Shown here: piece by piece, positions 1-29,316 of the stretch
Layout of the letters: each line of letters starts with the position of its first letter
Position numbering within the stretch: position 1 is the stretch's first letter
Virus record (IMG/VR): IMGVR_UViG_3300045141_000278
Coordinates: 1-30,623 of that record
Strand: one strand, 5' to 3'
DNA: 30,623 nucleotides
Source: a virus
Made by a program: the position numbers and the translations under genes
Notes under the pieces: model-generated
The model's input: the letters and a program-made list of their open reading frames with translations, nothing else
Told to the model about the DNA's origin: nothing
The model's database searches: none

Positions 1-72
1 GCCGCCGGTGAAGATCGCGCTGACCGTGCCCGGCGCGTAGGGGGCCTGGATGTCCCACGTTGAGGCAGCCAT
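1..72 (-). CDS. Start of a phage structural-region protein, cut by the window edge
   Basis: Only the first 24 codons are present, reading leftward from an ATG at 72. They begin M-A-A-S-T-W-D-I-Q-A-P-Y-A-P-G. A clear ribosome binding site (AGGAG) sits about 8 bases upstream. The gene follows the two small genes downstream of the capsid gene on the same strand, so it is likely a further head-completion or tail-side protein. That is a positional inference. Too little is visible to name a family. Confidence 0.6.
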   Translation of the reverse strand, partial: MAASTWDIQAPYAPGTVSAIFTGG

Positions 73-109
73 CTGACCGGGCTCCTGCGGCGGGGTGTCC
101 GGCATCGTC

Positions 110-376
110 TCAGCCACCGGAGGCCGCCTTCCCCTTCGCCACTGGCCGGGCTGCCGCCTTCACCGGCTCCGCTTCCTTCTCGTCAGGATCCGGGTCGCTT
201 TTGGCAGGCGGCTTCTCGTCCTCGCCCAGGTCCAGGTCCCTGAACAGGGTTCCCGAGCCCTCCAGGTCCCGCTTCACCAGCTCGTGGCGGTCCGGGAGTA
301 CTTCGCCCTTCGTCACGCGGCGGATCGTGCCGTCCTTCAGCTCCGCCACAAACGTGTCCTGCGCCTGCTTCGCCAT
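110..376 (-). CDS. Small acidic phage head-region protein (88 aa)
   Basis: The predicted protein has a compact N-terminal half with alternating hydrophobic residues (roughly 1-50). Its acidic and lysine-rich C-terminal half is low in complexity (D-P-D-P-D-E and K-A-A-A-R-P stretches) and is probably disordered. An AGGAG ribosome binding site lies 6-7 bases before the ATG. The gene sits two genes downstream of the major capsid gene and one gene before the truncated one, the usual place for head-tail connector or decoration proteins. I recognise no family motif, so the structural role rests on position only. Confidence 0.6.
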   Translation of the reverse strand: MAKQAQDTFVAELKDGTIRRVTKGEVLPDRHELVKRDLEGSGTLFRDLDLGEDEKPPAKSDPDPDEKEAEPVKAAARPVAKGKAASGG

Positions 377-385
377 GCCGGGCTC

Positions 386-598
386 CTACGTGTTCGGGTA
401 CGCCGCGAGGTAGGCGGCGGCCTGCGGGCTGATGTTGACGCCCGCCACCAGCGGCGCGGCGCTCCAGTACGACGCCGGGGACTCCAGGAACGCCTGCGAC
501 GTGATCGAGTCACGGGATGCGCCCTGGATGACGGACTCCATCTGGGTGGTCACCGTGTTCAGGAAGCAGAACGGCACCAGCGCGAACCGAGCGGCCAT
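386..598 (-). CDS. Small phage head-region protein (70 aa)
   Basis: This 70-residue protein starts M-A-A-R-F-A-L-V-P-F and has an alanine-rich C-terminal end. There is no signal peptide pattern or cysteine pair. An AAGG/AGG-type ribosome binding site precedes the ATG. The gene lies directly before the 88-residue gene and just after the GIY-YIG insertion, so before that insertion it was probably the first gene after the capsid gene. The function is unknown. A connector or minor head role is inferred only from synteny with tailed-phage head operons. Confidence 0.55.
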   Translation of the reverse strand: MAARFALVPFCFLNTVTTQMESVIQGASRDSITSQAFLESPASYWSAAPLVAGVNISPQAAAYLAAYPNT

Positions 599-613
599 CG
601 TTAACCTGCCTTC

Positions 614-1116: not shown

Positions 1117-2535
1117 TTACTTGCCCTTCATCACACGGAATGCATTCGGGGTGCTGATCTGCGAGCCGAAGCGCCAGAACATCGCCCACGCGGCCTGCCC
1201 GGTCGGGCGGCCGGTGGCCGTGTCTTTCACGAGGGGCTCATAGATCATGGAGACACCGACCCGATCACAAATTATGAATTGCCCGAAATCGCCGTATATG
1301 GCCTCTAGTGCACCAATTGCGACGGTTGCGTCCATTGTGGTGGATTCGTAGATCGGGGCGCCAAGAAGGCTCGCAGGCTGGCCCTTGCCCAGGTTCGTCC
1401 AGAAGCTGGAGCCGCCCGCAGTATCGAGCTGGCGGAACCGGTTGATCTGGGCCACGTTGGCCACCCAGGCCGCGCCTGGGGCGTTGCGGAACCGGGCCGG
1501 GAGCACCTGCTGCGTGGCGTACACGTCCGCGACAGCGACGACCAGGGTGGTCGCCGTGGTCACGACCGTGGTCGCGGCCGGGACGACACCCTGCGTCTGC
1601 GGCGGGGTGCCGGTGCCGGTGGCGAACTGGCTCTCTTCGAGCCTGTCCTTGGCATCGCTCAGGAGAACCGGCAGCTGCTGGCCGAAGTCGGTGTCCTCCA
1701 GCACCTCGTAGGACCCGAAAAGCCACGCATCGGCCTTCTGTGGCGTGATGACGATGTTGCCGACCGTCGGGGTCGCATCGGCGAACACCGCACCTTCACC
1801 GACCATCGAGGCGGTGACGCCCGCCGAGTTGACCCCATTCCACGTATTACTTGTGGTCTGGACGACCCGGGAGATGCGCCGCCACGGGTTGGCGCTGGAG
1901 GCGTTTGTCAAGATCACCGTGGGGTCGAGCACAAACGGTAGGAGGTACCCACCGTTTGCCAGGGTCAGCGACAGCGCGGCACGGGCCACCATGCCCTGCG
2001 GGTTCTCCAGGTAGGCGCGGAACATGTCCTGGTATTCCTCGGACCCGGTGGTCAGGATGTGCTCCGCGATGCCGCGGCCTTCCTTGCCGGTGTTCTCCTG
2101 GAGCATCCGGGTGGCGTTCTCGGCGCGGTCATCAAGCAGGTTCCCGCGCTTCGCCTCGACCTCGATGGCGTCGAACGCCCGGCCGCGAAGCTCCGGGGTC
2201 ATCACCATGTGGTTGCGGACGGCCTCCAGGTCCTCATACGGGGACCGGCCCGACTGCGCCCACAGATCCGGGCCACTGCGCGTGACCGTGGCGTGGGCGC
2301 CATCGTCGGGGCCCTCGCGGTTGGCGGGGTCAGCGGCGGCCCGGGTGATGGCCCGGATCTCCTCCATCCGCTTGATGATCGGCTTGGTCTCCTCATCGAG
2401 CTGGTGCCACCGCTCCACGAGGGTGTCGCGCAGGTCGCCGTCGTTCTCCTCGGTGGTTTCCTCCGAGGTTTCCATCCGCTGGAGCTCGGCCTTGATGCGG
2501 GCCATCTCCTCGGTCTTTTCCTTCAGCGTGGCCAT
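1117..2535 (-). CDS. HK97-fold major capsid protein with N-terminal delta (scaffold) domain
   Basis: This 472-residue protein builds the icosahedral head. Residues 1-75 are charged and helical (repeated K/E/R heptads), matching the delta domain that serves as scaffold in HK97-type capsids and is removed by the prohead protease encoded just upstream. From about 195 the HK97-family body begins with G-G-Y-L-L-P-F, then I-S-R-V-V-Q-T-T-S-N and K-A-D-A-W-L-F-G-S-Y-E-V-L-E-D. The length fits precursors of this family. The ribosome binding site GGAGG lies upstream of the ATG. The order protease-capsid is standard in HK97-like head operons. Confidence 0.93.
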   Translation of the reverse strand: MATLKEKTEEMARIKAELQRMETSEETTEENDGDLRDTLVERWHQLDEETKPIIKRMEEIRAITRAAADPANREGPDDGAHATVTRSGPDLWAQSGRSPYEDLEAVRNHMVMTPELRGRAFDAIEVEAKRGNLLDDRAENATRMLQENTGKEGRGIAEHILTTGSEEYQDMFRAYLENPQGMVARAALSLTLANGGYLLPFVLDPTVILTNASSANPWRRISRVVQTTSNTWNGVNSAGVTASMVGEGAVFADATPTVGNIVITPQKADAWLFGSYEVLEDTDFGQQLPVLLSDAKDRLEESQFATGTGTPPQTQGVVPAATTVVTTATTLVVAVADVYATQQVLPARFRNAPGAAWVANVAQINRFRQLDTAGGSSFWTNLGKGQPASLLGAPIYESTTMDATVAIGALEAIYGDFGQFIICDRVGVSMIYEPLVKDTATGRPTGQAAWAMFWRFGSQISTPNAFRVMKGK

Positions 2536-2559: not shown

Positions 2560-3909
2560 TTACCAGACCAGCCCGTACTTCTTCCGCAGCTCCTCAGAGT
2601 TCATGCGGAACAGCGCGTGCTGGTGATACCGGGCCGAGTGCTCATCGCTTTCAGGCGCGGGCGGCTCACCGGCGGCGGCTTCCTCATCGGGGGGAAGTGC
2701 CTCTGCGGGGTTTTCGTCGTCCGCGGCCCAGGTGCCGGGTGCGGACATGCGGACACCGAGGATCTCGGCGCCGGAGTATGCGGGCCACAGAACCGGGCCG
2801 TATTCGCGCAGGCCCAGTTCGGTGCGGCGCACGGTGCGCAGGCTCCCGGTGCTGTCCGGGCGGTGCCGGTCACCGCGGCGAAGCTGCGGGTCCGAGCGGA
2901 CGATCCGGCCGGTGAACGACTGGCTGGTGATCGACCCGGAGCGGATGTTCTCCAGGATCTCCTCGGCCAGCGGCGTCTCGTTGTACCGGGTGCGGGTCAG
3001 CAGCCCGCGGGCCTCGGCGCGGATGTCCACGGGCACGCCGATGGGCATGCTGAACCGCTCCGAGGGGGTGCCCTGGATGGTCATGCCGTGGTTGTAGAGA
3101 ACCTTCACCGAGCCGGGGAAGCCGCCGCGGGCCCGCGATGCGTCGGCGATGACCTTGTTGAATGCGCTGCGGTCGATCGTCTCGACGTAGTGGCCCTCGT
3201 GGTCGTGGATCTCGGCCGGGTCGTCGAACACCGCGGCGAACGCCTCGACGGTGCGCCCGTCGCCGCCGTCGGCGGAGCGGATGATGCGGATGTCCTCGAT
3301 GGGGTACAGCCGCATGTACTCGGTGCGGGACGGCGCCAGCGGGGCGTCGTCAGACCGATGCGCGCCGCCGCGTGCCTTGGCTGCCAGGCTCATGAACTTC
3401 GCCTTCCCGTATTTCTTCCGCCCGATATGGGCCGCGAGCGCGCCCGGGTCGCGCGCGCCCTTGGCCGCGAGCGATGCCTTGAGGGCCTTGAACCGCGCGC
3501 CGGAGCCGAGCTTGGCCGCGCGGGATGCGGGCGAGGGGTCACCGTCGGCGGCCTCGAAGTGGTGGACCTCCAGGCCGGTCAGGTCCGGCAGGTCTGAGCA
3601 GTCGTCCCAGGAGCCGTCGAGGCCGTCAGCGTCATGCGGTTCGCCCACCTGTGACCTCCCGGCCTTGTGCTCCATCGCTGCGTGGGTGGCTGGCCAGATG
3701 CCCAGCGCGTCGTGGTGAGCCTGAGCGCAATAGCCGTGCGCGTCCTTGACGTACTTCGAGAGGTGCAGCAGGCACCTGTCGTAATCCCCTGGTGCGCCCC
3801 AGCGGATCTTCGCGGCGCCCTCGCCGTGCACCCAGTACTCGTGCAGCCGCTCGGTGCCGCCCGGGTTCGTGACCTGGCCGCCGACACGGGCCGCGCCGCG
3901 CTCATCCAC
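2560..3909 (-). CDS. HK97-family prohead protease with an actinophage N-terminal domain
   Basis: The C-terminal half is a U35-type capsid maturation protease (about residues 200-390, counted from an upstream in-frame GTG at 3948). It includes the A-F-A-A-V-F-D strand, a catalytic-type histidine in L-Y-N-H-G and the serine motif S-G-S-I-T-S-Q-S-F. It would cut the capsid delta domain during head assembly. Ahead of it is a domain with E-Y-W-V-H-G-E-G-A-A-K-I-R-W, cysteines and histidines, then an A-H-I-G-R-K-K-Y-G-K segment; I have seen both in actinophage head proteins but can assign no role. I prefer the GTG at 3909, preceded by GGGAGG (449 aa), which also clears the divergent gene at 3936. 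Confidence 0.88.
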   Translation of the reverse strand: MDERGAARVGGQVTNPGGTERLHEYWVHGEGAAKIRWGAPGDYDRCLLHLSKYVKDAHGYCAQAHHDALGIWPATHAAMEHKAGRSQVGEPHDADGLDGSWDDCSDLPDLTGLEVHHFEAADGDPSPASRAAKLGSGARFKALKASLAAKGARDPGALAAHIGRKKYGKAKFMSLAAKARGGAHRSDDAPLAPSRTEYMRLYPIEDIRIIRSADGGDGRTVEAFAAVFDDPAEIHDHEGHYVETIDRSAFNKVIADASRARGGFPGSVKVLYNHGMTIQGTPSERFSMPIGVPVDIRAEARGLLTRTRYNETPLAEEILENIRSGSITSQSFTGRIVRSDPQLRRGDRHRPDSTGSLRTVRRTELGLREYGPVLWPAYSGAEILGVRMSAPGTWAADDENPAEALPPDEEAAAGEPPAPESDEHSARYHQHALFRMNSEELRKKYGLVW

Positions 3910-3923
3910 GGTGCCTCCCGGCG

Positions 3924-3929
3924 TAGCCT
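3924..3929 (+). promoter_or_regulatory. -10 element of a leaderless promoter for the 64-aa gene
   Basis: TAGCCT fits the actinobacterial TANNNT -10 pattern and ends exactly 6 bases before the ATG at 3936. Transcription would therefore start at or near the start codon. No good -35 sequence is seen at the expected distance. Confidence 0.5.
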
Positions 3930-3935
3930 GCGGAT

Positions 3936-4130
3936 ATGGATGACCCACGCCGCCCGTATGCCGTTGACGTCCAGTGGTGGGACGGCCAGACGGAGACCTT
4001 TGAAGTCCTGGGAATGATCATCGGCAAAGAGGATCTGCAACTGGAGCTGACTGACCGCTCTGGGCGGCGCATCCCGCTGCGGAACGTCCGCTGGTACGAC
4101 GTGAAGGCCGGGCGGCGCGTCCCGGGCTAG
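3936..4130 (+). CDS. Small plus-strand protein inside the head operon (64 aa)
   Basis: The protein looks like a compact beta-rich domain. Aromatic/hydrophobic strands (V-D-V-Q-W-W-D-G, F-E-V-L-G-M-I-I-G, L-Q-L-E-L-T, V-R-W-Y-D-V) alternate with turns, and there are no cysteines. It has no ribosome binding site but carries a TANNNT box 6 bases before the ATG, as do other isolated genes here. It lies between the protease and portal genes, divergent from the former and convergent with the latter. That placement suits an independently expressed prophage gene rather than a head component. Family unknown. Confidence 0.6.
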   Translation: MDDPRRPYAVDVQWWDGQTETFEVLGMIIGKEDLQLELTDRSGRRIPLRNVRWYDVKAGRRVPG

Positions 4131-4143: not shown

Positions 4144-6162
4144 TCACAGCTTCGCCGCCCTGGCGTCCAGCGCGTCAGCCTGTGCCCGCAGCGCCCCGAT
4201 CCGCTTGCGCAGCGACGCGGCCCGCGCCTTCAGCGAGTGCGCCCGGGTCGTCTTGCGCCGGGTCTTGCGGTGATGCTTCGCCGCCGCGTGATGGGTGACG
4301 TGCTTGCCCGCTCCCGCAGCCTTGGCCGTCGCCGCGGCTTTCACTGCCGCCGTGTGGGCCATGTGCTGCTGGTGCTCGATGACGTGCAGTTCCTTCTCCA
4401 GCTCGCGGGCCTTGGCCCGGTCGGCCGCCGCCTGGGCGTGCAGCGCGGCCTTCTCCCTGGCGTGGTCCCCGTGGCCGCCCGTGGCAGGCGCAGGAGCGGT
4501 CTTGGTGCCCGTCCCCGGCTTGGTGCCGTTCTTCGCCGCGCCGCCGCCGCCACCGCCAGTTGGGGCGAACTGGCCGCCCTTCGCCCCGGCGCCGAAGTGG
4601 CTCGTGTTGAACCGGGCCATCCCGTCCATACCGTCGTCGTCCGGCTCGCCGTCGTCGCCGTCGGGCAGTTCCGCGCCGCACTGGGAGCAGTACAGGGCGT
4701 CCGGGGCGTTCTTCGCCTCGCACGCCGGGCACGTCTGGTCCTCGCCGGGGTCGTCGCCGTCCTCAGCGCGGCGCACCGAGGCGAGCTGCGGCGCGGGCCG
4801 CGTGCTGTTCCCGCCGTCACCGGGGCTGACCGAGCCGACCGGAAGCCGCGCCTGCGTGCCCGCCGGGAGCGGCTCGGCCGTAGCGCCCGGCTGGCCCTGG
4901 GGCAGCATGTGCTGCACCGGCTGCTGCCCGGGAGGCACCGCCGCCGGGTCGGGGATCAGCTTCGTGATGTCGCCCGAGGTGACCGCCACGGGGATCGACT
5001 CGCGGGAGTAACCCGCCTGCCGCGCCGTCAGCACCGCCTGCATGTTCACCAGCGCCGTCTGGCCACGCTGCAAAGCGCCGTCCTGCAAAGCCGCGATGTC
5101 CGCGGTGTCGAACCACAGCCGGTTCCCCGCCGGGACCGTGATCAGCTGGCCCAGCGCCCCGCACACCGACCGCCACTGCGGCCTGGCCCAAAGATCGGCC
5201 AGCTTGTGCATGCTTTCCTGGTAGCCCTTGCCCGCGCCGCGCAAAGGCTCCAGGCCGACCAGGACGCCGGGGACCATCGACGCGGCCAGGATCCGGTCCG
5301 TGCCCGCCGTGGCCACGTTGGAGAAGTCCATCTGGGCCAGGGAGTTGCCGATCACAGTTACATCGGCACCTTGATCCAAAACCAAAGTCTTGAACGCGTT
5401 GTCGACGCCGCCGTGCCGGGCCACCATCCGCTCGCGGATCTTGTCCACGGTCGCGTCCTGCAGCTTCGACGCGTACTTGATCAGCAGGTTCGGGCTGGCA
5501 CTGTTCTGCAGGTACCTGATTTTGTACTGGGTCAGGCCGTCGTCCCCGGCCACGTCCCGCACGATCGGGGTAAGCCACGACATGCCCCGGAAGTCCGCCG
5601 CCGGGTCCGGGATCGGCGCCCAGTGGCACACCTCGTCGGCGGGCACCAGATGGCCCGTGCCCTGCCCGGTGACGCCCTTCGGCGGCTCGAACCAGTACCC
5701 GCGCTTGCGGCGGTAGACCCCGCCGCCGTCCACGGGCACCAGCTCGGAGATGATCGTCATCCAGTCCGGGCGCAGCCGCACCAGGCGGCCCTCACCCGGA
5801 GGCGCCCAGATGTAGGCGTTGCCGGTCAGGCCCGCGTCCTGCTCCATGCGGGCCAGCAGGCTCCCCGACGTGCTGTCCGGGCCCCACGGGTGCTCCAGCA
5901 GGCCCAGGCCGGTGTTGCCGAACAGGTGCTTGTCGTCGAGGGCCTGGAAGCAGAACCGGGCCTCGGAGAACAGCATCATGCGCAGCAGGAACGCGGCGAA
6001 CACCGGCGCGTTGGACGCGTGGGCCTTCTGCGCCCAGGCGGTGAACTGGGGCAGGACCGCCTCACGGTCGGGGGAGCCGTAGGAGGTGGTCATCACGGCA
6101 GCGCCGCTGGCCAGCCCTTCCCAGTACCCGTCGCGGCGTATCAGCCGGTCCCAGAGCCTCAC
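4144..6162 (-). CDS. Phage portal protein with C-terminal zinc ribbon and basic helical tail
   Basis: Residues 1 to about 430 resemble HK97-type portals: an N-terminal R-L-I-R-R-D-G-Y, the A-F-L-L-R-M-M-L-F-S-E-A-R-F region, G-N-A-Y-I-W, H-W-A-P-I-P-D-P, and a late T-A-R-Q-A-G-Y-S-R-E-S segment. The portal forms the dodecameric ring through which terminase pumps DNA. The remaining 240 residues are unusual: a four-cysteine zinc ribbon (C-P-A-C ... C-S-Q-C-G), a G-G-Q-F-A-P linker followed by poly-glycine, then a long alanine/lysine/arginine helix ending in coiled-coil heptads. The GTG start overlaps the stop of the preceding membrane gene (GTGA). Confidence 0.9.
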   Translation of the reverse strand: MRLWDRLIRRDGYWEGLASGAAVMTTSYGSPDREAVLPQFTAWAQKAHASNAPVFAAFLLRMMLFSEARFCFQALDDKHLFGNTGLGLLEHPWGPDSTSGSLLARMEQDAGLTGNAYIWAPPGEGRLVRLRPDWMTIISELVPVDGGGVYRRKRGYWFEPPKGVTGQGTGHLVPADEVCHWAPIPDPAADFRGMSWLTPIVRDVAGDDGLTQYKIRYLQNSASPNLLIKYASKLQDATVDKIRERMVARHGGVDNAFKTLVLDQGADVTVIGNSLAQMDFSNVATAGTDRILAASMVPGVLVGLEPLRGAGKGYQESMHKLADLWARPQWRSVCGALGQLITVPAGNRLWFDTADIAALQDGALQRGQTALVNMQAVLTARQAGYSRESIPVAVTSGDITKLIPDPAAVPPGQQPVQHMLPQGQPGATAEPLPAGTQARLPVGSVSPGDGGNSTRPAPQLASVRRAEDGDDPGEDQTCPACEAKNAPDALYCSQCGAELPDGDDGEPDDDGMDGMARFNTSHFGAGAKGGQFAPTGGGGGGAAKNGTKPGTGTKTAPAPATGGHGDHAREKAALHAQAAADRAKARELEKELHVIEHQQHMAHTAAVKAAATAKAAGAGKHVTHHAAAKHHRKTRRKTTRAHSLKARAASLRKRIGALRAQADALDARAAKL

Positions 6163-6392: not shown

Positions 6393-6899
6393 TCACAGGT
6401 CCCAGGTGCCGGGCCCGGAGACGACCTCCCAGCCCGTAAACGCCCACACGGCCTCCGTGGCCGCCACCAGCGGGGACTGGTCGACCGTCACTTTGCGCTC
6501 CCACGCCGCCGCGCCCGCCAGCGGGCGCTGCATCGCAGCGCGGACCGCAGCCGTCAGCGGCGGCTGGCCCAGGTGGATCAGGCCGCCGCCGTTAACCAGG
6601 TCCATGAAGTCGCCGTGCGCCACCGCCACCTCGCGCGGGGTGGGCTGCGTCACCAGGATGCCGATATCAGCCAGCGGGCGGATCAGCGTCGCCGCCTGCG
6701 ACATCGGGTCCACAACGACGGCGACCGGGTCATGCTTGGCGTACAGCTCACCCAGCCTGTCCACCGCACCGCGCGGATGGTCATACCAGACCAGGTCCAC
6801 CAGCATCCGGGAACCGCCAGCCTCGCGGCCTGCAGCGATGATCGCGCAGACCTTGCGGTCCAGGCTGATCTCCGCCCCGAACGCAACCTCGCCGCTCAC
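6393..6899 (-). CDS. Terminase large subunit, separate nuclease-domain gene
   Basis: This 168-residue protein matches only the C-terminal RNase H-like nuclease half of phage TerL. It shows F-G-A-E-I-S-L-D-R-K (first acidic strand, with Glu where Asp is usual), V-V-V-D-P (second strand), a D-F-M-D-L-V-N-G-G-G-L-I-H segment and the D-Q-S-P-L-V-A-A-T-E-A-V-W ending. The nuclease cuts concatemeric DNA to start and end packaging. Its GTG start overlaps the stop of the ATPase gene by four bases (GTGA), and the join falls exactly at the inter-domain linker. It could be a real two-polypeptide terminase or the result of a one-base indel. Confidence 0.85.
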   Translation of the reverse strand: MSGEVAFGAEISLDRKVCAIIAAGREAGGSRMLVDLVWYDHPRGAVDRLGELYAKHDPVAVVVDPMSQAATLIRPLADIGILVTQPTPREVAVAHGDFMDLVNGGGLIHLGQPPLTAAVRAAMQRPLAGAAAWERKVTVDQSPLVAATEAVWAFTGWEVVSGPGTWDL

Positions 6900-7831
6900 A
6901 TCCGCGCACCCGGGTCAGCGGCAGCGGACCAGGCGTCCTCGGGGATGACCTGCCACGAACCGCCATCCACCGGGTAATCGCCTACGGACAGGCGCTCACG
7001 GGCGAACTCCCCCGGCGACAGCGCCGCACGTTCCTTGGCGATGTACTCCGCCGTGATCCTGATCCCCATGCCCGGATTAGCCAGCGCCCACTCCGCCGGG
7101 TCCGCCGGATCATAGGCGTCCGGGTCCACCGACCACTCGAAGAACGCCAGCGCCGGGTCCGCGCCCGTCAGGCCCCGCTCGCGCACCCGGCCCAGTTGCG
7201 TCGAGGTCGGCAGGCCAGCGGTTGACGTGTACCAGACTTGCGGGTTCGGCCGGGCCGACAGCGTGGGCAGCAGCGCCGCCATCTCGTCATCACCCAGCGC
7301 GTACGCCTCGTCCAGGATCACCAGATCCGCCGAGAAGCCACGGCCCGAGCCGCTGGTCCGGGCGATGAACCGCAGCCGCTTGCCGTTCTTCAGCTCGATC
7401 GACTCGGCGCCCCGCTGGAGGTACACCTGACGCACCCGGCGGCGGAACGAGGGGTTCCGCTCGATCCGCCCCTGGATGCGCCGGAACGCCTCCGACGCCG
7501 TCTTGAACTCATGCGCGCTGTGCAGGATCAGCTCGGCGCCGAAGTCATCAAGGAACAGCGCCGCGAGCTCCAGGGCCTCCAGGACGGCCCCCTTGCCGTT
7601 CTGGCGGGCCACGATCAGGGCCACCTCGAACGCGGACCACCGCTCATCGCCCGTGCGGCCCAGGCCCTGCTCCAGAACCCAGCGCTCCCAGTCGTCCAGG
7701 TGCAGGCCAGCGGCGCGGGCAAGTTCGGCTGTCCGCTCACCTTCCGACCACGCCGCGGGCGGCGCCGACGCTATGCGCGGGCGCTGGCTACCCAGCAGCA
7801 GCGCGCCTGGCGCGTCGAGCGTTGAGGTCAT
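6896..7831 (-). CDS. Terminase large subunit, separate ATPase-domain gene
   Basis: This is the packaging motor ATPase. Residues 74-81 form the variant Walker A common in actinophage terminases (V-A-R-Q-N-G-K-G). Residues 170-176 form Walker B with the catalytic glutamate (L-V-I-L-D-E-A), and the coupling motif Y-T-S-T-A-G follows near 200. The protein stops at 311 residues, right after the typical linker W-S-A-A-A-D-P-G-A-R-M. Full-length TerL proteins of this type continue straight into the nuclease domain, which here is the next gene. The ATG at 7831 has AGGA upstream and overlaps the end of the small-subunit gene by 44 bases. Confidence 0.9.
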   Translation of the reverse strand: MTSTLDAPGALLLGSQRPRIASAPPAAWSEGERTAELARAAGLHLDDWERWVLEQGLGRTGDERWSAFEVALIVARQNGKGAVLEALELAALFLDDFGAELILHSAHEFKTASEAFRRIQGRIERNPSFRRRVRQVYLQRGAESIELKNGKRLRFIARTSGSGRGFSADLVILDEAYALGDDEMAALLPTLSARPNPQVWYTSTAGLPTSTQLGRVRERGLTGADPALAFFEWSVDPDAYDPADPAEWALANPGMGIRITAEYIAKERAALSPGEFARERLSVGDYPVDGGSWQVIPEDAWSAAADPGARM

Positions 7832-21862: not shown

Positions 21863-22135
21863 CTACGACGCCTCGGCCGTGGCGTCCGATCCGATCAGCC
21901 AGCCGTACGACACCCCGGTCCGCAGAGCCCACAGACGCAGCGTCCGGGTGTCCGGCTCGATGCGCCCGCTGGTCCAGTTGGAGACAGAGGCGCGGCTGAC
22001 GTCGAGGTACTCAGCCATGTCCGCGGAGCCGATCCCCGCGTCCCGCATGGCCTTGCGCATGCGGTCAGCCAGGTCGAACTCGGGCGTGGTGCCGCCCTCG
22101 CCGAAAACCGCCGGGGCGGGAAATTGACTTTCCAT
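21863..22135 (-). CDS. XRE-family repressor, leftward member of a paralogous pair (90 aa)
   Basis: A five-helix XRE DNA-binding domain is visible: D-L-A-D-R-M-R-K-A-M-R-D-A-G, then M-A-E-Y-L-D-V-S-R-A-S-V-S-N-W as the HTH, and the conserved G-R-I-E-P-D-T-R-T-L-R-L-W-A-L. It has no C-terminal LexA-type peptidase, so it is unlikely to respond to DNA damage by self-cleavage. The ATG at 22135 lies 6 bases from a -10-like CACAAT, so the message may be leaderless; an in-frame ATG further upstream would run through the operator. It is followed by the secreted-protein gene. It is the best candidate for the lysogenic repressor, although its divergent paralog could also fill that role. Confidence 0.85.
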   Translation of the reverse strand: MESQFPAPAVFGEGGTTPEFDLADRMRKAMRDAGIGSADMAEYLDVSRASVSNWTSGRIEPDTRTLRLWALRTGVSYGWLIGSDATAEAS

Positions 22136-22141
22136 TCGCAA

Positions 22142-22217
22142 ATTGTGACACGCACGCAAGGGCGTTGGCAAGCCCTGTGGGCCAGGGTCTTGCCAACGCT
22201 TAACCAACGTGTAACAG
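22142..22217. promoter_or_regulatory. Divergent leaderless promoters with a shared inverted-repeat operator
   Basis: GCGTTGGCAAG (22162-22172) and CTTGCCAACGC (22189-22199) form a perfect inverted repeat, extended inward by CCCTG/CAGGG with one bulged base. Each arm contains a -35 box TTGCCA: rightward at 22190-22195 with -10 TAACAG at 22212-22217 (spacer 16), leftward at 22171-22166 with -10-like CACAAT at 22147-22142 (spacer 18). Both -10 boxes end 6-7 bases before an ATG. A further CCAACG half-site lies at 22204-22209. A repressor bound here would block both polymerases. Confidence 0.8.
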
Positions 22218-22224
22218 TTTGCTT

Positions 22225-22545
22225 ATGACAGAGCAGCCAGCCCCCCCGCAGGCGCTCCCCCAGTGGGACGTCGCTGACCGTCTCCGCAAAGCCCTCCGCC
22301 ACGCCGGTGTCGGCCCTACCGAGATGGCCGACTACCTCGGCGTCTCGCGCCAGAGCGTCGGCAACTGGATGACCGGGCGCATCGAGCCATCACTGCAGAC
22401 GCTCCGGCTGTGGGCGCTGCGGTGCGGCGTGAGCTACGAATGGCTCGTGGGTGACCGCGATTTTAGAAGGCGGGGGGCGCCATTCAGAAGAGCACGTTCT
22501 TTGACCTCAAGAATCCGGGCAATTCACCGTACATTGGCCGCATGA
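22225..22545 (+). CDS. XRE-family repressor, rightward member of the paralogous pair (106 aa)
   Basis: The domain D-V-A-D-R-L-R-K-A-L-R-H-A-G ... M-A-D-Y-L-G-V-S-R-Q-S-V-G-N-W ... G-R-I-E-P is about 64% identical by hand alignment over 66 residues to the leftward protein. A basic C-terminal extension (R-D-F-R-R-R-G-A-P-F-R-R-A-R) is unique to this copy. The ATG at 22225 lies 7 bases after TAACAG, indicating a leaderless message; a TTG six bases earlier is less likely. It precedes the integrase on the same strand. The arrangement suggests a Cro-like or integration-linked regulator that competes for the same operator. Confidence 0.85.
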   Translation: MTEQPAPPQALPQWDVADRLRKALRHAGVGPTEMADYLGVSRQSVGNWMTGRIEPSLQTLRLWALRCGVSYEWLVGDRDFRRRGAPFRRARSLTSRIRAIHRTLAA

Positions 22546-22615: not shown

Positions 22616-23461
22616 ATGCCTACTGAGAAGCACCTGGAATACCTGCGCCTGTCCGGTCACACGGCCACGTCGGTCTACGCGCGAAAACGCGCGCTGGCCC
22701 GCATGGCCGCCGTCCTTGCCGTCCCTCTGCTGTCGGCCACCGCGGCCGACCTTGCCGCCTGGCGCGCGTCGCTGACCACCGGCGACGCGGCCACCGTCGC
22801 CTACGTCAGCCACGCGCGCAGCTTCTACGCCTGGGCGGTTGACCAGGGGCTCATCGAGTCGAACCCGGCCGCGAACCTGCCCGTGCCCCGGCTGGGCCGC
22901 CGCATCCCCCGCCCCATCGCCGAGGACGACCTGATGTACGCCCTCGCCGCCGCGCCCCGCCGTGTCCGCGCCTGGCTGGTGCTGGCCGCCTGGTGCGGTT
23001 TACGGGCACGGGAGATCGCGCTGCTGCGGCGGGAGAACATACTGGAGACCGCCTCGCCGCCTGTCCTGATCGTGGCCGCCGATGCCACTAAGGGCCACAG
23101 TGAGCGGGTTATCCCGCTGTCGGCGTTCGTCCTTTCCGAGCTGGCCGCCGCGCGGCTGCCCACTAGCGGGTACGCGTTCCGGCGGATGGACGGGCGGCCG
23201 GGGCCGAATGAGGCGTGGCTGGTAAGTCACCTGGCCAATAGGCACCTGCACAATTGCGGTATTACGGCCACGCTCCACCAGCTGCGGCACCGTTTCGGGA
23301 CGGCCGCGTATCACGCCAGCCGGGACCTGCGCGCGGTGCAGGAGCTACTCGGGCACCAGAACGTATCCACAACCGCTGGGTACGCGGCGTGGGACCGGGC
23401 CGCGGCGGCCGCGGCGGTGGAGGCGATTCCGGCGCCCGCCCGGCTGAGAGTGGCACAGTAG
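22616..23461 (+). CDS. Tyrosine integrase with core-binding domain (281 aa)
   Basis: This is a complete phage-integrase-family recombinase. The N-terminal SAM-like core-binding domain covers about residues 1-90. The catalytic set is intact: R130 in C-G-L-R-A-R-E, K159 in T-K-G-H, H221-x-x-R224 in L-H-Q-L-R-H-R-F, H247 in L-L-G-H-Q-N, and the nucleophile Y256 in T-A-G-Y-A-A-W. It lacks an arm-type DNA-binding N-terminal domain and is XerC/D-sized, so it may need only a simple attachment core. It likely catalyses integration of the element. It lies downstream of the rightward repressor, about 70 bases away. Confidence 0.9.
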   Translation: MPTEKHLEYLRLSGHTATSVYARKRALARMAAVLAVPLLSATAADLAAWRASLTTGDAATVAYVSHARSFYAWAVDQGLIESNPAANLPVPRLGRRIPRPIAEDDLMYALAAAPRRVRAWLVLAAWCGLRAREIALLRRENILETASPPVLIVAADATKGHSERVIPLSAFVLSELAAARLPTSGYAFRRMDGRPGPNEAWLVSHLANRHLHNCGITATLHQLRHRFGTAAYHASRDLRAVQELLGHQNVSTTAGYAAWDRAAAAAAVEAIPAPARLRVAQ

Positions 23462-24230: not shown

Positions 24231-24842
24231 ATGGCCCGCTTGACGACCAAAGGCGAGACCTTCCCCATCGAGCCGCTGACCAGCGCCGAAGTGGGGCTGC
24301 TGCTGCGCCAGTGCTCGACCACCGCACCCACCGGGATACGGAACCGGGCATTGATTACCGTCATGTACCGGGCGGGCCTGCGGGTAGACGAGGCGATCAA
24401 GATCCGGGCGCCGGACATCAACCCCGAGCGGGGCACCGTCCGGGTGCTGCACGGCAAGGGGAACAGGGCCCGGACGATCAGCATCGACGACGGGGCGGTA
24501 GCCCTGATCCAGCGGTGGATGGACCGCCGCGCCCAGCTCGGCCACCGGCAGGGCCCGCTGTTCTGCACCCTGGCAGGCACGCCGCTGTCCGCGGTGTACA
24601 TCCGGAACATGCTGCACCGCATCGGCGCCAAGGCGGGCATCGAGAAGCGCGTTCACCCGCACGGACTGCGCCATACCTACGCGATGGACCTGGCGGCCGA
24701 AGGCACGCCGGTCAACGTCATCCAGAAGCTGCTCGGCCACTCGCACCTGTCGACCACCGACGCGTACCTGCGCCATGTGGGTGACCCGGCAGTGCTGGCC
24801 GTTGGCCGTAACCGTCCGCACTGGGACCCGGAGGAGATATGA
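24231..24842 (+). CDS. Minimal tyrosine recombinase lacking a core-binding domain (203 aa)
   Basis: The catalytic domain is complete: R51 in A-G-L-R-V-D-E, K76 in G-K-G-N-R-A-R, H144-x-x-R147 in H-G-L-R-H-T-Y, H170 in L-L-G-H-S-H, and Y179 in T-T-D-A-Y-L. Only about 15 residues precede the domain, so the usual SAM-like N-terminal half is absent. An ATG with GGAAGGG upstream supports the annotated start. It is closer to XerC/D-type sequences than to the neighbouring integrase. It may act on a short site, work with a host partner, or be a derived excisionase-like or resolvase-like enzyme. Confidence 0.85.
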   Translation: MARLTTKGETFPIEPLTSAEVGLLLRQCSTTAPTGIRNRALITVMYRAGLRVDEAIKIRAPDINPERGTVRVLHGKGNRARTISIDDGAVALIQRWMDRRAQLGHRQGPLFCTLAGTPLSAVYIRNMLHRIGAKAGIEKRVHPHGLRHTYAMDLAAEGTPVNVIQKLLGHSHLSTTDAYLRHVGDPAVLAVGRNRPHWDPEEI

Positions 24843-26119: not shown

Positions 26120-26322
26120 GTCTCAGCCTTTTCGCGCCCGGCTTCTATCTCATCCAGGGCCCGGAGCATAACCAGGCAGTCATCCCTGGTGACGTTTGAC
26201 CCGGTGGCGACCATCCGCCAGTACAGGAAGATCGCCTGCGTCTCCAAGGGCAAGCCACGGACTAGATGCCGGACGGCAGCCAGGGCACGCTCCCGCTCCT
26301 GCTCGGTCATGCGCTCAGCCAT
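26116..26322 (-). CDS. Helical protein coupled to the GntR regulator (68 aa)
   Basis: Three amphipathic helices are predicted (E-R-E-R-A-L-A-A-V-R-H-L-V, T-Q-A-I-F-L-Y-W-R-M-V, C-L-V-M-L-R-A-L-D-E-I-E-A). It overlaps the end of the regulator gene by eight bases. It may be a partner or small co-regulator of the GntR-type protein. No family recognised. Confidence 0.6.
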   Translation of the reverse strand: MAERMTEQERERALAAVRHLVRGLPLETQAIFLYWRMVATGSNVTRDDCLVMLRALDEIEAGREKAET

Positions 26323-26548
26323 TGCCTTTCCCCTTCACGAACGTTCCGCGGCCCGGGACGGTGAACACCACCCCCTCGTCCCGCAGGATGTCCAGGGCCC
26401 GCTGCACCGTCCTCGGCGCCACGCCCAGCTGCTCGGCCAGGTCCACGTGCGAGGGCAGCTTTGGCCCCAGCTCCCCGGCTGCGATCTGCCCGCGGATGCG
26501 GGCGGCCACCTGCACGCGCGGCCAGTCCGGCGACTGCGGGTCGATCAT
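26315..26548 (-). CDS. GntR-family winged-helix regulator, KorA-like (77 aa)
   Basis: The whole protein is a GntR-type DNA-binding domain: R-V-Q-V-A-A-R-I-R-G-Q-I-A-A-G-E-L, the HTH D-L-A-E-Q-L-G-V-A-P-R-T-V-Q-R-A-L-D-I-L, and the wing G-V-V-F-T-V-P-G-R-G-T-F-V. There is no effector domain. GntR/KorA-type proteins repress tra genes in Streptomyces conjugative plasmids and AICEs because unregulated transfer is harmful. It diverges from the DUF2637/TraB operon, the usual site of such control. TACGGT lies exactly 6 bases before its ATG, so its message is probably leaderless. Confidence 0.87.
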   Translation of the reverse strand: MIDPQSPDWPRVQVAARIRGQIAAGELGPKLPSHVDLAEQLGVAPRTVQRALDILRDEGVVFTVPGRGTFVKGKGNG

Positions 26549-26554
26549 GCGCCA

Positions 26555-26612
26555 ACCGTAACCACCTAACCTACGTTCCGGCTAGGCAACGCACTGCACA
26601 GCAACGTACAGT
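26555..26612. promoter_or_regulatory. Divergent leaderless promoters of the transfer region
   Basis: The leftward -10 is TACGGT (26560-26555), 6 bases before the GntR start. The rightward -10 is TACAGT (26607-26612), 6 bases before the DUF2637 start at 26619. The space between holds repeated TAACC/TACG motifs that could be the regulator's binding sites. No clear -35 boxes are seen. Confidence 0.65.
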
Positions 26613-26618
26613 CAGAAC

Positions 26619-27269
26619 ATGCGTTTGTCACCCAACCGGCTCGTTTTCGTCGTCGCCGCGCTCGCTGTCGTCGCCGTCGCCGGGTTCGCGGCGGTGGTTT
26701 CCTACAGCCACTTCTTCAGCCTGGGCCGCATGCACGGCCAGGACGGCACCAGCGCGCGGCTGACGCCCCTTTCCGTTGACCTGCTGATCCTCGCCGCGTC
26801 GCTGGTCCTGCTGTGGGCCGCGCGTAACAACGTGGACGCGCCGTGGCCGATCCGCGCGGTCCTGGTCGCCTCGGTGCTGGCGACGGTTGCCGGGAACGTG
26901 GCGGACGGGCTGGCGGACGGGTGGATGGCCGCGCTGCTCAACGGCTGGCCCGGCGCTGCCTTCGTCGCCGCGATCGAGATCCTGATGTGGCTGGTCAGGG
27001 CCGCCCGCGCCGTCGCTCTCGGCGAAGCCGCCGGGCACAGTCCCGGCGTGGCGCCGGAACCGGACGGCCTGGCCGCCGCCATCGCGGCGTACGCGGCGAC
27101 GGCGGCGGCGGGCAACCCGCTGTCCCGCAACCAGCTGCAGGAGCGTTTCCGGCTGACCCGCGCGGAGGCGGCGAAGGTGTGTACCCCAGAACCCCCGGCC
27201 GGGACGGCTCTCCCCTCCCCGGAAGTGACCGTCCCGGCCGGGCTGAACGGAAGCGGCGGCCATGACTGA
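26619..27269 (+). CDS. DUF2637 membrane protein (Spd-like)
   Basis: Four transmembrane segments are visible in the N-terminal 130 residues: near 8-28, 50-66, 78-98 and 105-127. They are separated by F-S-L-G-R-M-H-G-Q-D-G and W-A-A-R-N-N. This matches the DUF2637 family, which in actinobacterial plasmids and AICEs is linked to plasmid spread between hyphae. The C-terminal 85 residues are cytoplasmic and include a small helical segment (N-P-L-S-R-N-Q-L-Q-E-R-F-R-L-T-R-A-E-A-A-K-V), HTH-like in appearance. It is leaderless and overlaps the translocase start by eight bases. Confidence 0.85.
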   Translation: MRLSPNRLVFVVAALAVVAVAGFAAVVSYSHFFSLGRMHGQDGTSARLTPLSVDLLILAASLVLLWAARNNVDAPWPIRAVLVASVLATVAGNVADGLADGWMAALLNGWPGAAFVAAIEILMWLVRAARAVALGEAAGHSPGVAPEPDGLAAAIAAYAATAAAGNPLSRNQLQERFRLTRAEAAKVCTPEPPAGTALPSPEVTVPAGLNGSGGHD

Positions 27270-29316
27270 CCGGCTGCCAGCCGTCCCCGACGATGACCTG
27301 ATCGTTGAGGGCGAGATCGTCGATGACGAGCCGCCCGCGCCGCAGCGGGCCGCCGGGACGGCGCTGGCGATCGTCGGTGACCGCCGTACGCAGTTCGCTG
27401 CCCGCCATGCCGCCTATGTCGGGCTTGGCGTCGGCGTGTTCTTCCGGCGGCTGTGGGAGTCGCGCTCGGCCACCCGCTTTGACCGATGGCTGCGCGGCGC
27501 CGAGGCCGCGGGCGACCGTGAGGGGCTGCTGGCGATCGAGGACCGGCGGGCCCGGTTCGTCAAGGACCGGCACGACCGGCGGATGGACTGGCTGGAGGTG
27601 CCGGGCAAGATCGCACGCGAGGCGATCTGGATCCTGGCCGCCGCGCTCGGCGTCCTGACCGTGATCGGCCTGGCGCTGGCGTGGCACAGTCACAGCTGGG
27701 CGGCGACGGTCGACCCGTTCGTGACGTTCGCAACGATCGTCGCCTGGCTGGTGGCCGCCGTGTCGGCCGGGTGGTTCCCGTTCCTGGTGACCGCGGCAGT
27801 CGTCTCGCTGGCGCTGCTGTGGACACTGGGCCGCCGTCACGCCCGCGGCATGACCTCGGGCTGGCTGGCGCCGAACCAGGAGGAGATCGGCGTCGTGGTC
27901 ACCGCGGACGGGATCGTGGTGGCCCTGCAGTACCTGCCGGTGGCCGAGATGCGGCGGGCGTTCAAGGACAACTGGGTGCCGACGTTCCACCAGACCCCGG
28001 TGCTGGACGGCCAGGGCTACTCGGCGGTGTTCTCCCTGCCGTACGGGGTGACGCCGCAGATGATCGCCGACCAGCGGGCGGTGCTCGCCCGCAACCTGCA
28101 CCGCGCCGAGGTCGAGGTCTGGCCGGGCGACGCGGAGAAGGGCGGCGTTGGCCCGGCCGGGTTCGTCTCAATGTGGGTGGCCAACAAGGGTGCCCTGTCC
28201 CGCCCGGCGCCGGAGTATCCCCTGCTGCACGAGGGCAAGGCGGACGTGTTCGAGGGCGTCCCGGCCGGGGTCAGCCCCCGCGGCGATGTGATCACGCTGC
28301 CCGTGGTCAGCAATAACTTCGTGGTCGGCGGCCAGATGGGCCAGGGCAAGTCGAACGCCTGCCGCGTCGTCCTGCTCGGCGCCGCGCTGGACCCGCTGGC
28401 CGAGCTGTGGGTGCACGTCCTGGCGTACAACGGCGACTTCGACGCCTACGCCCCGCGGCTGGCCCGGTACGTCAAGGGTGCCGAGGACGAGCACGTAGAG
28501 GCCGCGGTGGCCAGCCTCGATGAGCTGTATTCCGAGGTGGCCCGCCGGGAAGCACGGCTGGCTGAGCTGGGCGCGAAGAAGGTAACCCGCGGCCTGGCTC
28601 AGCAGAACGCTGACCTGCGGCCCCGGCTGGCCCTGTTCTCCGAGTGCCATGAGATGTTCGGGCACCCGAAGCTGGGCACCGAGGCCGCCGACCTGGCCGC
28701 GTCGGTGCTTCGCCGGGCGCGCAAGGCGGCGGTATGGCTGGGCTTCGACACGCAGTCCAGCCGCAAGGACGCCATTCCGCCGAAGGTCGTCGAGCTGGTC
28801 AGCGTGAACGCCTGCTTCTACGTGAAGTCGTGGCGCTCGAACGACGGCTTCCTGGGTGACGGCTCGTTCGCCGCGGGCATCCGGGCGACGGAGCTGCGGC
28901 CGGGCCGGGACCGCGGCACGTCGCTCATCACGGGCGTGTCCGATGCCCAGTTCGAGCTGCTGAAGTGGCACTTCATCGAGGTCAACGACGACACGGGCTA
29001 CGACGCCGCGGCCGAGGTGATCGAGCGCGCGGTGGCGAAGGCGAAGCCGGGCGTGCTGTCCGGCTCTGCACCGGCGCCCGCTGAGGCCCGGGATCTGATG
29101 GCCGACCTGATCGAGGTGGCCGGGCACGAGCGCGTCCGGCTGGCTGACCTGCCTGCGCGGCTGCGCGAGCTGGCCCCGGGTTGCCGCGAGTACCGGACGC
29201 TGACCGGCGCGGCGCTGCGCGACCTGCTCGAGGACCGCGGCGTGCGCGTGACCAACACCGGCAACGTGCCGAGGCTGAACCCGGACGACCTGCACCGGGC
29301 GCTCGCCAGTGAGTGA
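27262..29316 (+). CDS. FtsK/SpoIIIE-type DNA translocase, TraB/TraSA-like
   Basis: This 684-residue protein is the conjugative transfer pump of the AICE type, which moves double-stranded DNA between mycelia without relaxase or type IV secretion. Two to three transmembrane helices (about 121-141, 153-190) anchor the ring. The FtsK domain has Walker A G-Q-M-G-Q-G-K-S (K363) and the Walker B region L-A-L-F-S-E-C-H-E (E461). The C-terminal region (about 600-684) resembles a winged-helix DNA-recognition domain (R-L-A-D-L-P-A-R-L-R-E-L, A-L-R-D-L-L-E-D-R-G-V-R-V). The start overlaps DUF2637, giving a tra-spd operon. Identification as TraB-like is strong; the DNA target is unknown. Confidence 0.9.
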   Translation: MTDRLPAVPDDDLIVEGEIVDDEPPAPQRAAGTALAIVGDRRTQFAARHAAYVGLGVGVFFRRLWESRSATRFDRWLRGAEAAGDREGLLAIEDRRARFVKDRHDRRMDWLEVPGKIAREAIWILAAALGVLTVIGLALAWHSHSWAATVDPFVTFATIVAWLVAAVSAGWFPFLVTAAVVSLALLWTLGRRHARGMTSGWLAPNQEEIGVVVTADGIVVALQYLPVAEMRRAFKDNWVPTFHQTPVLDGQGYSAVFSLPYGVTPQMIADQRAVLARNLHRAEVEVWPGDAEKGGVGPAGFVSMWVANKGALSRPAPEYPLLHEGKADVFEGVPAGVSPRGDVITLPVVSNNFVVGGQMGQGKSNACRVVLLGAALDPLAELWVHVLAYNGDFDAYAPRLARYVKGAEDEHVEAAVASLDELYSEVARREARLAELGAKKVTRGLAQQNADLRPRLALFSECHEMFGHPKLGTEAADLAASVLRRARKAAVWLGFDTQSSRKDAIPPKVVELVSVNACFYVKSWRSNDGFLGDGSFAAGIRATELRPGRDRGTSLITGVSDAQFELLKWHFIEVNDDTGYDAAAEVIERAVAKAKPGVLSGSAPAPAEARDLMADLIEVAGHERVRLADLPARLRELAPGCREYRTLTGAALRDLLEDRGVRVTNTGNVPRLNPDDLHRALASE

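What the first reader, a model, noticed from the sequence alone, without database searches (positions are those of the whole stretch)
1..29316. Phage head/packaging genes and an AICE-type conjugative translocase in one 30-kb window
Seen: terminase, portal, protease and HK97 capsid genes at the left. At the right are a GntR/KorA-like regulator, a DUF2637 protein and a TraB-like FtsK pump, with two tyrosine recombinases between the two sets. Known: AICEs spread by TraB-driven DNA transfer and normally carry no capsid genes, while prophages package DNA and normally carry no TraB. Inference: either a composite element able to move both by particles and by conjugation, or two elements integrated side by side with a border near 24-25.4 kb. 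No tail genes, relaxase or AICE replication initiator are visible in the window.
Basis: partly seen in the sequence, partly recalled or inferred. Interest (0 to 1): 0.75.

Follow-up and report, generated by a model that had tools for sequence, protein, structure and literature searches.

The report
Actinophage carrying a conjugation pump
This piece of a soil bacterial virus carries, inside its own genome, the DNA pump (and probably the pump's docking site) that mobile elements of filamentous bacteria use to pass from cell to cell without virus particles, so one element may have two ways to spread.

Summary
The gene content is real, and the evidence favours one element, not two neighbours. The window is a linear, truncated IMG/VR phage record; tail genes fall beyond its left end. 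Four related records with 127-bp terminal repeats, two circular Pseudonocardia plasmids, and a more distant prophage bounded by a 14-bp att repeat, with an empty site in a congener, all carry capsid and TraB-like FtsK genes together. The FtsK (27262-29316) groups with AICE, plasmid and phage TraB-like proteins, apart from chromosomal FtsK-type proteins. New here: 54-158 bp after its stop lie five CTAAC repeats, with similar spacing after TraB genes of AICEs, plasmid pCM32 and other phages. A scan of 2.9 million viral contigs for this spacing returned 30; in 18 a TraB gene ends within about 90 bp upstream on the same strand. This is probably a clt, TraB's docking site. Best reading: a temperate actinophage that could spread as virions and, by inference, as double-stranded DNA through TraB. 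Transfer is untested. The plasmid-phage pZL12 is a precedent, so this is a new variant of a known kind.

The parts
1117..2535 (-). HK97-type major capsid protein
   Evidence: PF05065 2.2e-33; relatives in 76 viral loci, best segments 54-79%
2560..3948 (-). prohead protease (S78)
   Evidence: PF04586 2.6e-10; phrog_80
4144..6162 (-). portal protein with a zinc-ribbon stretch
   Evidence: PF04860 2.3e-28
6393..6899 (-). terminase large subunit, nuclease part (separate ORF)
   Evidence: phrog_9 positions 548-663; also separate in relatives
6896..7831 (-). terminase large subunit, ATPase part
   Evidence: PF03354 4.7e-8; phrog_9 8e-59
11832..12515 (-). C5 cytosine DNA methyltransferase
   Evidence: phrog_363 1.9e-39
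13383..14213 (-). endolysin (amidase)
   Evidence: PF01510 3.8e-16
14431..16518 (-). primase/helicase with DUF3631 (RepAM-type) domain
   Evidence: PF12307 8e-63; 68% to phage G038; 56% over 359 aa to plasmid of Streptomyces NBC_00859
16511..17503 (-). nuclease-like protein (weak Holliday-junction resolvase match)
   Evidence: phrog_9019 6e-4
18060..19379 (-). RecT-like annealing protein
   Evidence: phrog_561 1.8e-41
21863..22545 (.). divergent related genes (21863-22207 minus, 22219-22545 plus), probable lysogeny switch
   Evidence: 131-nt inverted similarity at 71%; HTH reading of 22219-22545 is by eye from the translation, no profile search was made
22616..23461 (+). tyrosine integrase 1 (phage integrase)
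   Evidence: PF00589 8.1e-16; 57% to G016_055; matches the pPaSha2 integrase region in two frames
24231..24842 (+). tyrosine recombinase 2, catalytic domain only (203 aa)
   Evidence: PF00589 1.5e-41
26315..26548 (-). small GntR-type winged-helix regulator, divergent from DUF2637-FtsK
   Evidence: PF00392 2.9e-14; 54% to G016_054, same place in that phage
26619..27269 (+). DUF2637 protein, four hydrophobic segments, possible spread protein
   Evidence: PF10935 1.2e-9; hydropathy
27262..29316 (+). TraB-like FtsK DNA translocase
   Evidence: PF01580 4.1e-6; TraB group in trees; Foldseek TcpA/FtsK motors
29370..29478 (+). putative clt: CTAAC repeats at 29370, 29388, 29397, 29454, 29474
   Evidence: 5 of the 8 CTAAC in the window; similar spacing after TraB in AICEs, pCM32 and phages; cluster scan; pattern scans

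Best explanation
The window is part of the genome of a temperate tailed phage of high-GC actinomycetes. [quoted passage not shown] Proposed working: the GntR protein holds the module down; when the phage DNA is free as a circle, TraB hexamers bind the CTAAC repeats by the C-terminal winged helix and drive double-stranded phage DNA through septa or into a touching hypha, helped by DUF2637. The element then re-integrates by its integrase, so it can spread as virions after lysis and, without killing the donor, as naked double-stranded DNA. Shown: gene content, one-element architecture in relatives, TraB kinship, a conserved repeat array after traB confined to some branches of the TraB tree. Inferred: host group, repeat binding, regulation by GntR, the role of DUF2637, and DNA transfer itself.
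For: One element: four related records with 127-bp terminal repeats (G015, G038, G016, G013) hold capsid, tail-region and TraB genes; pPaSha2 is a 41,938-bp circular plasmid with MCP, protease, portal, terminase, Bet, integrase, DUF2637, FtsK, holin and a tape-measure gene; P. broussonetiae plasmid unnamed3 has terminase, capsid, protease, integrase, DUF2637 and FtsK; in G645 FtsK and DUF2637 lie inside a 14-bp att repeat (503404/531396) with serine integrase, capsid and tape measure, and the empty site exists in congener G803. TraB identity: tree sets it with TraB-like proteins of phages, AICEs and plasmids, apart from three chromosomal FtsK-type proteins (96/90); AICE relatives bounded by 66- and 70-bp tRNA repeats. 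clt: five CTAAC 54-158 bp after the stop; in 990,502 bases all 9 places with 4 or more CTAAC in 200 bp of one strand adjoin a TraB 3' end; 12 of 36 TraBs have the array, clustered on the tree (5 changes, shuffled mean 10.1, 0 of 500 shuffles as low); 18 of 30 pattern hits follow a TraB gene on the same strand; 11 of 18 records searched from those hits carry portal or capsid. Known clt of pWTY27 is 16 bp within traA and the adjacent 159 bp, with four short direct repeats bound by TraA (PMC3583192, passages).
Against: No experiment shows transfer. The window is a fragment, so unity is shown in relatives, not in it; G645 and pPaSha2 have only distant head genes (pPaSha2 capsid 24%; the G645 capsid had no BLAST match to this family). 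Window FtsK is only 19-38% identical to FtsKs of the eight phages with the same capsid, against 49-54% to G041 and G001, so the module was swapped in. Of 17 genomes with a relative of the capsid, 7 have a TraB match, none near the capsid; where both are on one contig (G264) they are about 276 kb apart. The Walker B aspartate position is serine in window, G001 and G041; the first P-loop glycine is A or S in 7 other TraB-like proteins. Phage TraBs of G016, G013, G022, G002, G038, G028, the phage G031 (one copy) and pPaSha2 show no CTAAC array. 11 of 30 pattern hits have no TraB in the fetched stretch. The array threshold was set after seeing the counts. Two known Spd proteins do not match DUF2637, and DUF2637 also occurs in phages without this TraB.
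Confidence: 0.65

Rival explanations
1. The translocase serves the prophage inside its own mycelium: it moves or rescues prophage DNA across septa (segregation into spores, curing losses, multimer handling), with little or no transfer to other cells.
For: TraB proteins are FtsK/SpoIIIE kin, and plasmid spreading can be viewed as a stability function (PMC4170104, passages). Records such as pPaSha2 are extrachromosomal circles. The array evidence fits intramycelial spread as well as mating.
Against: The same kind of module and array are found in AICEs, whose defining trait is transfer (PMC3218068 passages). The G645 prophage with it is integrated, where segregation help is not needed.
Confidence: 0.22
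2. Two elements side by side: a prophage fragment next to an AICE, with a border near 24-25.4 kb.
For: Two tyrosine recombinases are present; TraB loci without a capsid nearby are common in such genomes; the window FtsK resembles AICE TraB more than those of phages with the same capsid; about 3 kb between integrase 1 and GntR has no counterpart in G016; no TraB was near the capsid in 17 genomes.
Against: Same gene order and strands as closed phage G016; one-element cases in plasmids and inside att repeats; no tRNA in the window.
Confidence: 0.06
3. The module is cargo used for something else, such as excluding rival elements or a decayed remnant.
For: Walker B aspartate changed to serine; the array is reduced to one copy in G031; PHROGs file phage FtsK-like proteins under 'moron' genes.
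Against: Long intact ORF, GK[S/T] of the P-loop present in all 17 TraB-like proteins aligned, and repeat spacing kept between window and G015 to within 1 bp, all signs of selection.
Confidence: 0.06
4. Metagenome assembly chimera.
For: The record is a linear contig of unknown coverage.
Against: Even GC (0.65-0.74); junction order matches an independent closed genome (G016).
Confidence: 0.01

Closest known systems
Streptomyces plasmid-phage pZL12 / phiZL12 (and pSLE1)
   Same: One actinomycete element with phage particle genes and a transfer locus; [quoted passage not shown] title of the pZL12 paper seen).
   Different: pZL12 is a large plasmid (recalled); the window family is phage-like with integrases and, in part, a traB-adjacent repeat array shared with AICEs. 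The pZL12 paper is not held and I did not compare sequences with it.
AICEs (actinomycete integrative and conjugative elements, e.g. the G550 and G041 elements here)
   Same: TraB-type FtsK, tyrosine integrase, DUF3631 replication domain, repeat array after traB.
   Different: The two delimited here span about 12 and 19 kb between tRNA repeats and neither overlaps a PF05065 capsid match; the window has a packaging and head module. The GntR gene near the G550 element lies outside its repeats.
pSVH1 / pIJ101 / pWTY27 TraB-clt transfer systems
   Same: Single FtsK-like translocase with a C-terminal winged helix; short direct repeats at the clt (PMC3583192 and PMC4170104, passages); pSVH1 also has a GntR regulator upstream.
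   Different: Repeat is CTAAC-based rather than the pWTY27 or pIJ101 repeats quoted there, and pSVH1 lacks it; carried by a phage.
Pseudonocardia alni plasmid pPaSha2 (CP052773)
   Same: Similar layout: packaging genes, Bet, integrase, DUF2637, FtsK on a circle.
   Different: Found as an extrachromosomal circle; FtsK 33-35% over the aligned part, capsid 24%; no CTAAC array.

Membership tests
AICE | site-specific integrase | tested here: met
   PF00589 twice
AICE | FtsK/SpoIIIE-type Tra (PF01580) | tested here: met
   4.1e-6, over cut-off; TraB group in trees
AICE | Rep module: RepSA, RepAM (PF12307) or Prim-Pol | tested here: inconclusive
   PF12307 8e-63 present, but inside a 695-aa phage-type primase; PHROGs call it DNA primase
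AICE | no virion genes | tested here: not met
   capsid, portal, protease, terminase present; hence not filed as an AICE
AICE | cis-acting transfer locus recognised by Tra | tested here: inconclusive
   conserved repeat array after traB; binding untested
Temperate tailed phage (Caudoviricetes) | HK97 capsid, portal, terminase, protease | tested here: met
Temperate tailed phage (Caudoviricetes) | tail genes | tested here: inconclusive
   no tail match among the ORFs scanned in the truncated window; long genes at that place in relatives, tape measure confirmed by PHROGs in pPaSha2 and G645
Temperate tailed phage (Caudoviricetes) | integrase and lysogeny regulators | tested here: met
   integrase and GntR by profile; divergent HTH pair by eye
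Temperate tailed phage (Caudoviricetes) | infectious particles | not testable with these tools
   needs induction and plaque assay
Phage-plasmid | autonomous plasmid replication and partition genes | tested here: inconclusive
   no ParA/ParB or plasmid Rep match among the 27 window ORFs scanned with Pfam, but the window is incomplete; relative pPaSha2 is a circular plasmid record
TraB translocase family | membrane N-terminus, P-loop motor, C-terminal winged helix | tested here: met
   hydrophobic segments 121-181 (the same simple measure found none in pSVH1 TraB), Walker A, predicted helices then two strands at 612-683 with block pLDDT 69-86, Foldseek TcpA/FtsK motors
TraB translocase family | canonical Walker B aspartate | tested here: not met
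   FSE in window, G001 and AICE G041, where other TraBs have DE or EE; shared with an AICE, so not decisive
TraB translocase family | moves double-stranded DNA between cells | not testable with these tools
   mating experiment needed

The most novel reading that the evidence does not exclude
A widespread set of temperate actinophages has taken over the complete AICE transfer unit, pump plus docking site, more than once, and uses it to move its genome from cell to cell as double-stranded DNA without lysis, so that in mycelial bacteria 'phage' and 'conjugative element' are interchangeable states of one lineage; the CTAAC array is a new, portable clt class shared by phages, AICEs and plasmids.
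Probability: 0.45. Interest if true: 0.82.

Novelty: new variant of a known kind. Interest (0 to 1): 0.62.

Why it matters
Phages and conjugative elements are usually treated as separate vehicles. Here the same kind of pump and the same cis-acting array appear in phages, integrative elements and plasmids, in one case inside proven prophage borders. If transfer is real, phages of actinomycetes could enter neighbouring hyphae without surface receptors, bypassing receptor-based resistance, and could carry chromosomal DNA along. The CTAAC array also gives a simple DNA signature for finding such elements.

Tried and rejected
Side-by-side elements: rejected for the family because FtsK lies inside att repeats in G645 and on closed molecules elsewhere. 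Chromosomal FtsK or EccC identity: not supported by the tree (the EccC label of two rows is mine, from their length). Search for exact tRNA att repeats around the G645 prophage gave only a 14-base inverted match; the att is in an ssb-like gene (named by eye) instead. Exact 8-mer counting after traB showed no repeat array; the array appeared on reading the sequence and counting 5-mers. My first cluster scan printed only the best place per sequence strand and left out L180; it was repeated over 52 sequences listing every place. Near-DNA search of the first 24 kb against phages: no match. Window FtsK against phage records: no match at 1e-5. Treating DUF2637 as the known SpdB: not supported, since SpdB2 of pSVH1 and SpdB of NBC_00859 do not match PF10935. 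PHROG_733's label 'excisionase' for DUF2637: not adopted; the protein has four hydrophobic segments. Weak G036 match (74 positions, 8.4e-7) not counted as TraB. L252 (pattern hit at a locus edge) counted as no TraB. In the BLAST cluster map, genes of G016 and G013 labelled DUF2637 do not match PF10935. Searches scored at most 4 and 2 candidates a genome, so their counts are lower bounds. Confidence in the best explanation was lowered by 0.01 and the side-by-side rival raised by 0.01 on re-check, because the 17 genomes were first left out.


Full report
WHAT IS THERE. The window is a complete IMG/VR virus record of 30,623 bases, linear, with no flanking DNA. On the minus strand from the left: GIY-YIG endonuclease, HK97 capsid, prohead protease, portal, terminase in two ORFs, then methyltransferase, endolysin, a primase with DUF3631, RecT and small early genes. 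Around 22.2 kb two related genes diverge, HTH-like by eye. On the plus strand follow integrase 1, a short second recombinase, DUF2637 and the FtsK-like pump, with a divergent GntR-type regulator before DUF2637.

THE PHAGE FAMILY. The capsid protein has relatives in 76 viral loci. I fetched 10 virus records, nine of this family and G001, and mapped genes. Terminase, portal, protease, capsid, tail region and amidase follow one another. The FtsK sits in one of two places: between the lysis end and the integrase-early region (G013, G015, G016, G022; also after the amidase in G002, whose record ends there), or between the early region and the terminase end, with the integrase elsewhere (G031, G038, G028); G030 has DUF2637 but no TraB match. 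The window fits the first arrangement and stops just after the capsid, which explains the missing tail genes. Testing perfect terminal repeats of 10 to 200 bases in 12 sequences (the 10 records, the window, a 60-kb stretch of G041) found 127-base repeats in G015, G038, G016 and G013, and 12 bases in G022; 127 is a common assembly k-mer (recalled), so I take these four as closed molecules. All four carry capsid and FtsK. G016 has integrase 1 (57%), GntR (54%), a gene in DUF2637 position and FtsK (23%) in the same order and strands as the window.

PREVALENCE. With the window protein as query, 8 of 39 capsid-family records, plus the unrelated phage G001 and the genome G041, had a match (10 of 41 in all). 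With a 12-row profile, 9 of 50 capsid-family records matched; I count 8, since G036 matched over 74 positions only, and these 8 also supplied rows of the profile. The 50 are those I chose of 76, mostly the longer ones. Of the 16 of those records at or above 45 kb, 7 have it. G001, with other terminase, portal and tail families, carries a 54% FtsK and a DUF2637 protein. Against this, in 394 genomes of the class, 17 have a capsid relative (29-44% identity); 7 of these 17 have a TraB match somewhere, none near the capsid: six on other contigs and one (G264) about 276 kb away. Four of those prophages that I mapped show no FtsK (G324, G162, G281, G170). So TraB is an optional part of such phages.

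ONE ELEMENT OR TWO. Besides the four closed records, three cases show capsid and TraB on one element; their head genes are only distantly related to the window's. (1) pPaSha2, a 41,938-bp circular plasmid of Pseudonocardia alni, has terminase (42% to the window ATPase part), portal, protease, capsid (24%), tape measure, Bet, integrase, DUF2637, FtsK and holin. (2) P. broussonetiae plasmid unnamed3, 27,393 bp circular, has terminase, capsid, protease, head-tail genes, integrase, DUF2637 and FtsK. (3) In genome G645 a serine integrase, terminase, capsid, tape measure, FtsK (528424-530550) and DUF2637 (530553-531311) lie between two copies of a 14-base repeat at 503404 and 531396 that splits a gene read by eye as ssb-like; the joined flanks give an open frame and align across the junction to the congener G803 (78% over 546 columns, 26 of them gaps). 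By contrast, of 37 FtsK places found in 29 of 397 genomes of the order at E <= 1e-60 (at most 2 candidates scored a genome), only this one had a Phage_capsid match within 15 kb; 13 of the 29 genomes had such a match anywhere. Two of the others are delimited AICE-like elements: G550 (70-base repeat at 5596442 and 5608256) and G041, Actinophytocola xinjiangensis (66-base repeat at 11885 and 31206), each beside a tRNA-Ser.

THE PUMP. In a 21-row tree the protein groups with TraB-like proteins of phages, AICEs and plasmids, apart from three chromosomal FtsK/SpoIIIE-domain proteins of G041 (96/90; one FtsK-like, two longer ones I take for EccC), and with G001 and G041 at 100/100; the divergent G030 protein falls outside. 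Pairwise identity is 54% to G001, 49% to G041, 38% to G031, 33% to G015 and 19-32% to the other phages of the family; genome searches give 48-53% to six loci. GK[S/T] of the P-loop is in all 17 TraB-like rows, but the first glycine of the motif is A or S in 7 of them; the Walker B aspartate position is serine in window, G001 and G041. The predicted model is modest (mean pLDDT 62) but has long N-terminal helices, a RecA-like core and C-terminal helices followed by two strands, as in a winged helix; Foldseek finds the conjugation coupling protein TcpA and FtsK motors at 1.5e-9 and 3.6e-9.

THE PUTATIVE CLT. CTAAC occurs 8 times in the window on both strands; 5 are on one strand at 29370-29474, starting 54 bases after the FtsK stop. 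The offsets after the stop are 54, 72, 81, 138, 158 in the window and 51, 69, 78, 134, 154 in phage G015; AICEs G041 and G550, prophage G645 and plasmid pCM32 have two or three copies 8-9 bases apart, then 54-56 bases, then copies 19 and 12 bases apart. An alignment of 13 rows shows further shared bases in most, such as a CAGGTCA-like box and a GTTAG-AAA-CTAAC inverted repeat, imperfect in the window. In 52 sequences (990,502 bases, both strands) there are 9 places with 4 or more CTAAC within 200 bases of one strand, and all 9 adjoin the 3' end of a TraB gene: window, G015, G645, G041, G550, G684, G748, pCM32, and G001 on the opposite strand. Of 36 TraB genes, gathered without regard to the motif, 12 have the array (3 or more copies on one strand within 600 bases, a threshold set after seeing the counts, and L159 with two copies in a cut-off 330 bases): the nine above, L159, L164 and L165. 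The label needs 5 changes on the tree against a shuffled mean of 10.1, and 0 of 500 shuffles reached it. Twenty-four lack it, among them phages G016, G013, G022, G002, G038, G028, G031 (one copy only), pPaSha2 and pSVH1, and AICE-like G533. Phage genes and genes from loci without a capsid are mixed within the array-bearing groups, which suggests at least two exchanges.

PATTERN TEST. Two four-repeat patterns with this spacing were run over 2.9 million viral contigs and gave 30 contigs. In 18 of 30 a TraB profile match ends 0-90 bases (to within a few bases) upstream on the same strand, and in one more (G001) it lies beside the array on the opposite strand; 11 have no TraB in the fetched stretch, 10 of them with GC below 0.66 and one (L252) at a locus edge. 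Three of the 19 were already known here (G001, G015, and L229, which is identical to the G645 prophage). Of 18 of these records searched (17 with TraB, and L252), 7 have a Phage_capsid match and 10 a portal match; 11, all with TraB, have one or both. Borders of these virus records are predictions, so neighbours joined in one record are not excluded there.

LITERATURE. Passages only: TraB recognises 8-bp repeats at clt and moves double-stranded plasmid (PMC4170104); pWTY27 clt is 16 bp within traA plus the adjacent 159 bp, with four 7-bp direct repeats bound by TraA; pIJ101 clt has three 5-bp repeats; pZL12 transfer needs a tra gene and two neighbours (PMC3583192); AICE definition (PMC3218068); pSLE1 resembles pZL12 (PMC4487206); phiNon1 of Nonomuraea, circular and integrated, is likened to pZL12 (PMC5431353); phage-plasmids can carry conjugation functions (PMC11652158); PMC4616171 and PMC12169178 gave nothing of this kind. 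The listed titles and abstract starts (a part of the papers counted in the larger searches; one search found none) showed no report of this phage family, of a CTAAC-type clt, or of a clt in a phage. The library is partial and the pZL12 paper is not held, so this is weak evidence of novelty.

CONCLUSION. The window is most likely a fragment of a temperate actinophage with an AICE-type transfer module built in, not a chance neighbourhood. That the module is part of the phage is close to certain for several relatives and very likely for the window. That the array is a clt is likely. That it moves phage DNA between cells is the best reading of the anatomy but remains to be tested.

Noticed in passing
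window 6393-7831: Terminase large subunit is encoded as two overlapping ORFs (ATPase, nuclease); two separate ORFs are also called in the related records mapped, while pPaSha2 has one annotated terminase gene.
   Followed up: partly
L073 10315-10574; L072 10605-10864: Group I intron (RF00028, 62 bits) lies inside the capsid match in two related phage records; several other capsid matches are longer than normal; 4 of those (L034, L072, L073, L075) were searched.
   Followed up: partly
window 614-1072: GIY-YIG endonuclease beside the capsid gene, matched in only 2 of 78 loci (L016, L021).
   Followed up: no
window 4144-6162: Portal protein has a zinc-ribbon-like stretch at residues 478-499, below Pfam's cut-off.
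   Followed up: no
G008, G009, G010, G020, G030, G034 (records of L013, L014, L016, L029, L047, L068): DUF2637 genes (below cut-off in G008 and G009) occur in phages of this family without a TraB match, so DUF2637 may have a role apart from TraB; in G030 a 715-aa protein with a P-loop-like stretch and no family over cut-off sits near it.
   Followed up: partly
L189 (G533:C156): A locus with a close TraB (52%) lacks the CTAAC array, an exception worth a look.
   Followed up: no
window 24231-24842: A 203-aa tyrosine recombinase with catalytic domain only, second to the phage integrase; role unknown.
   Followed up: no
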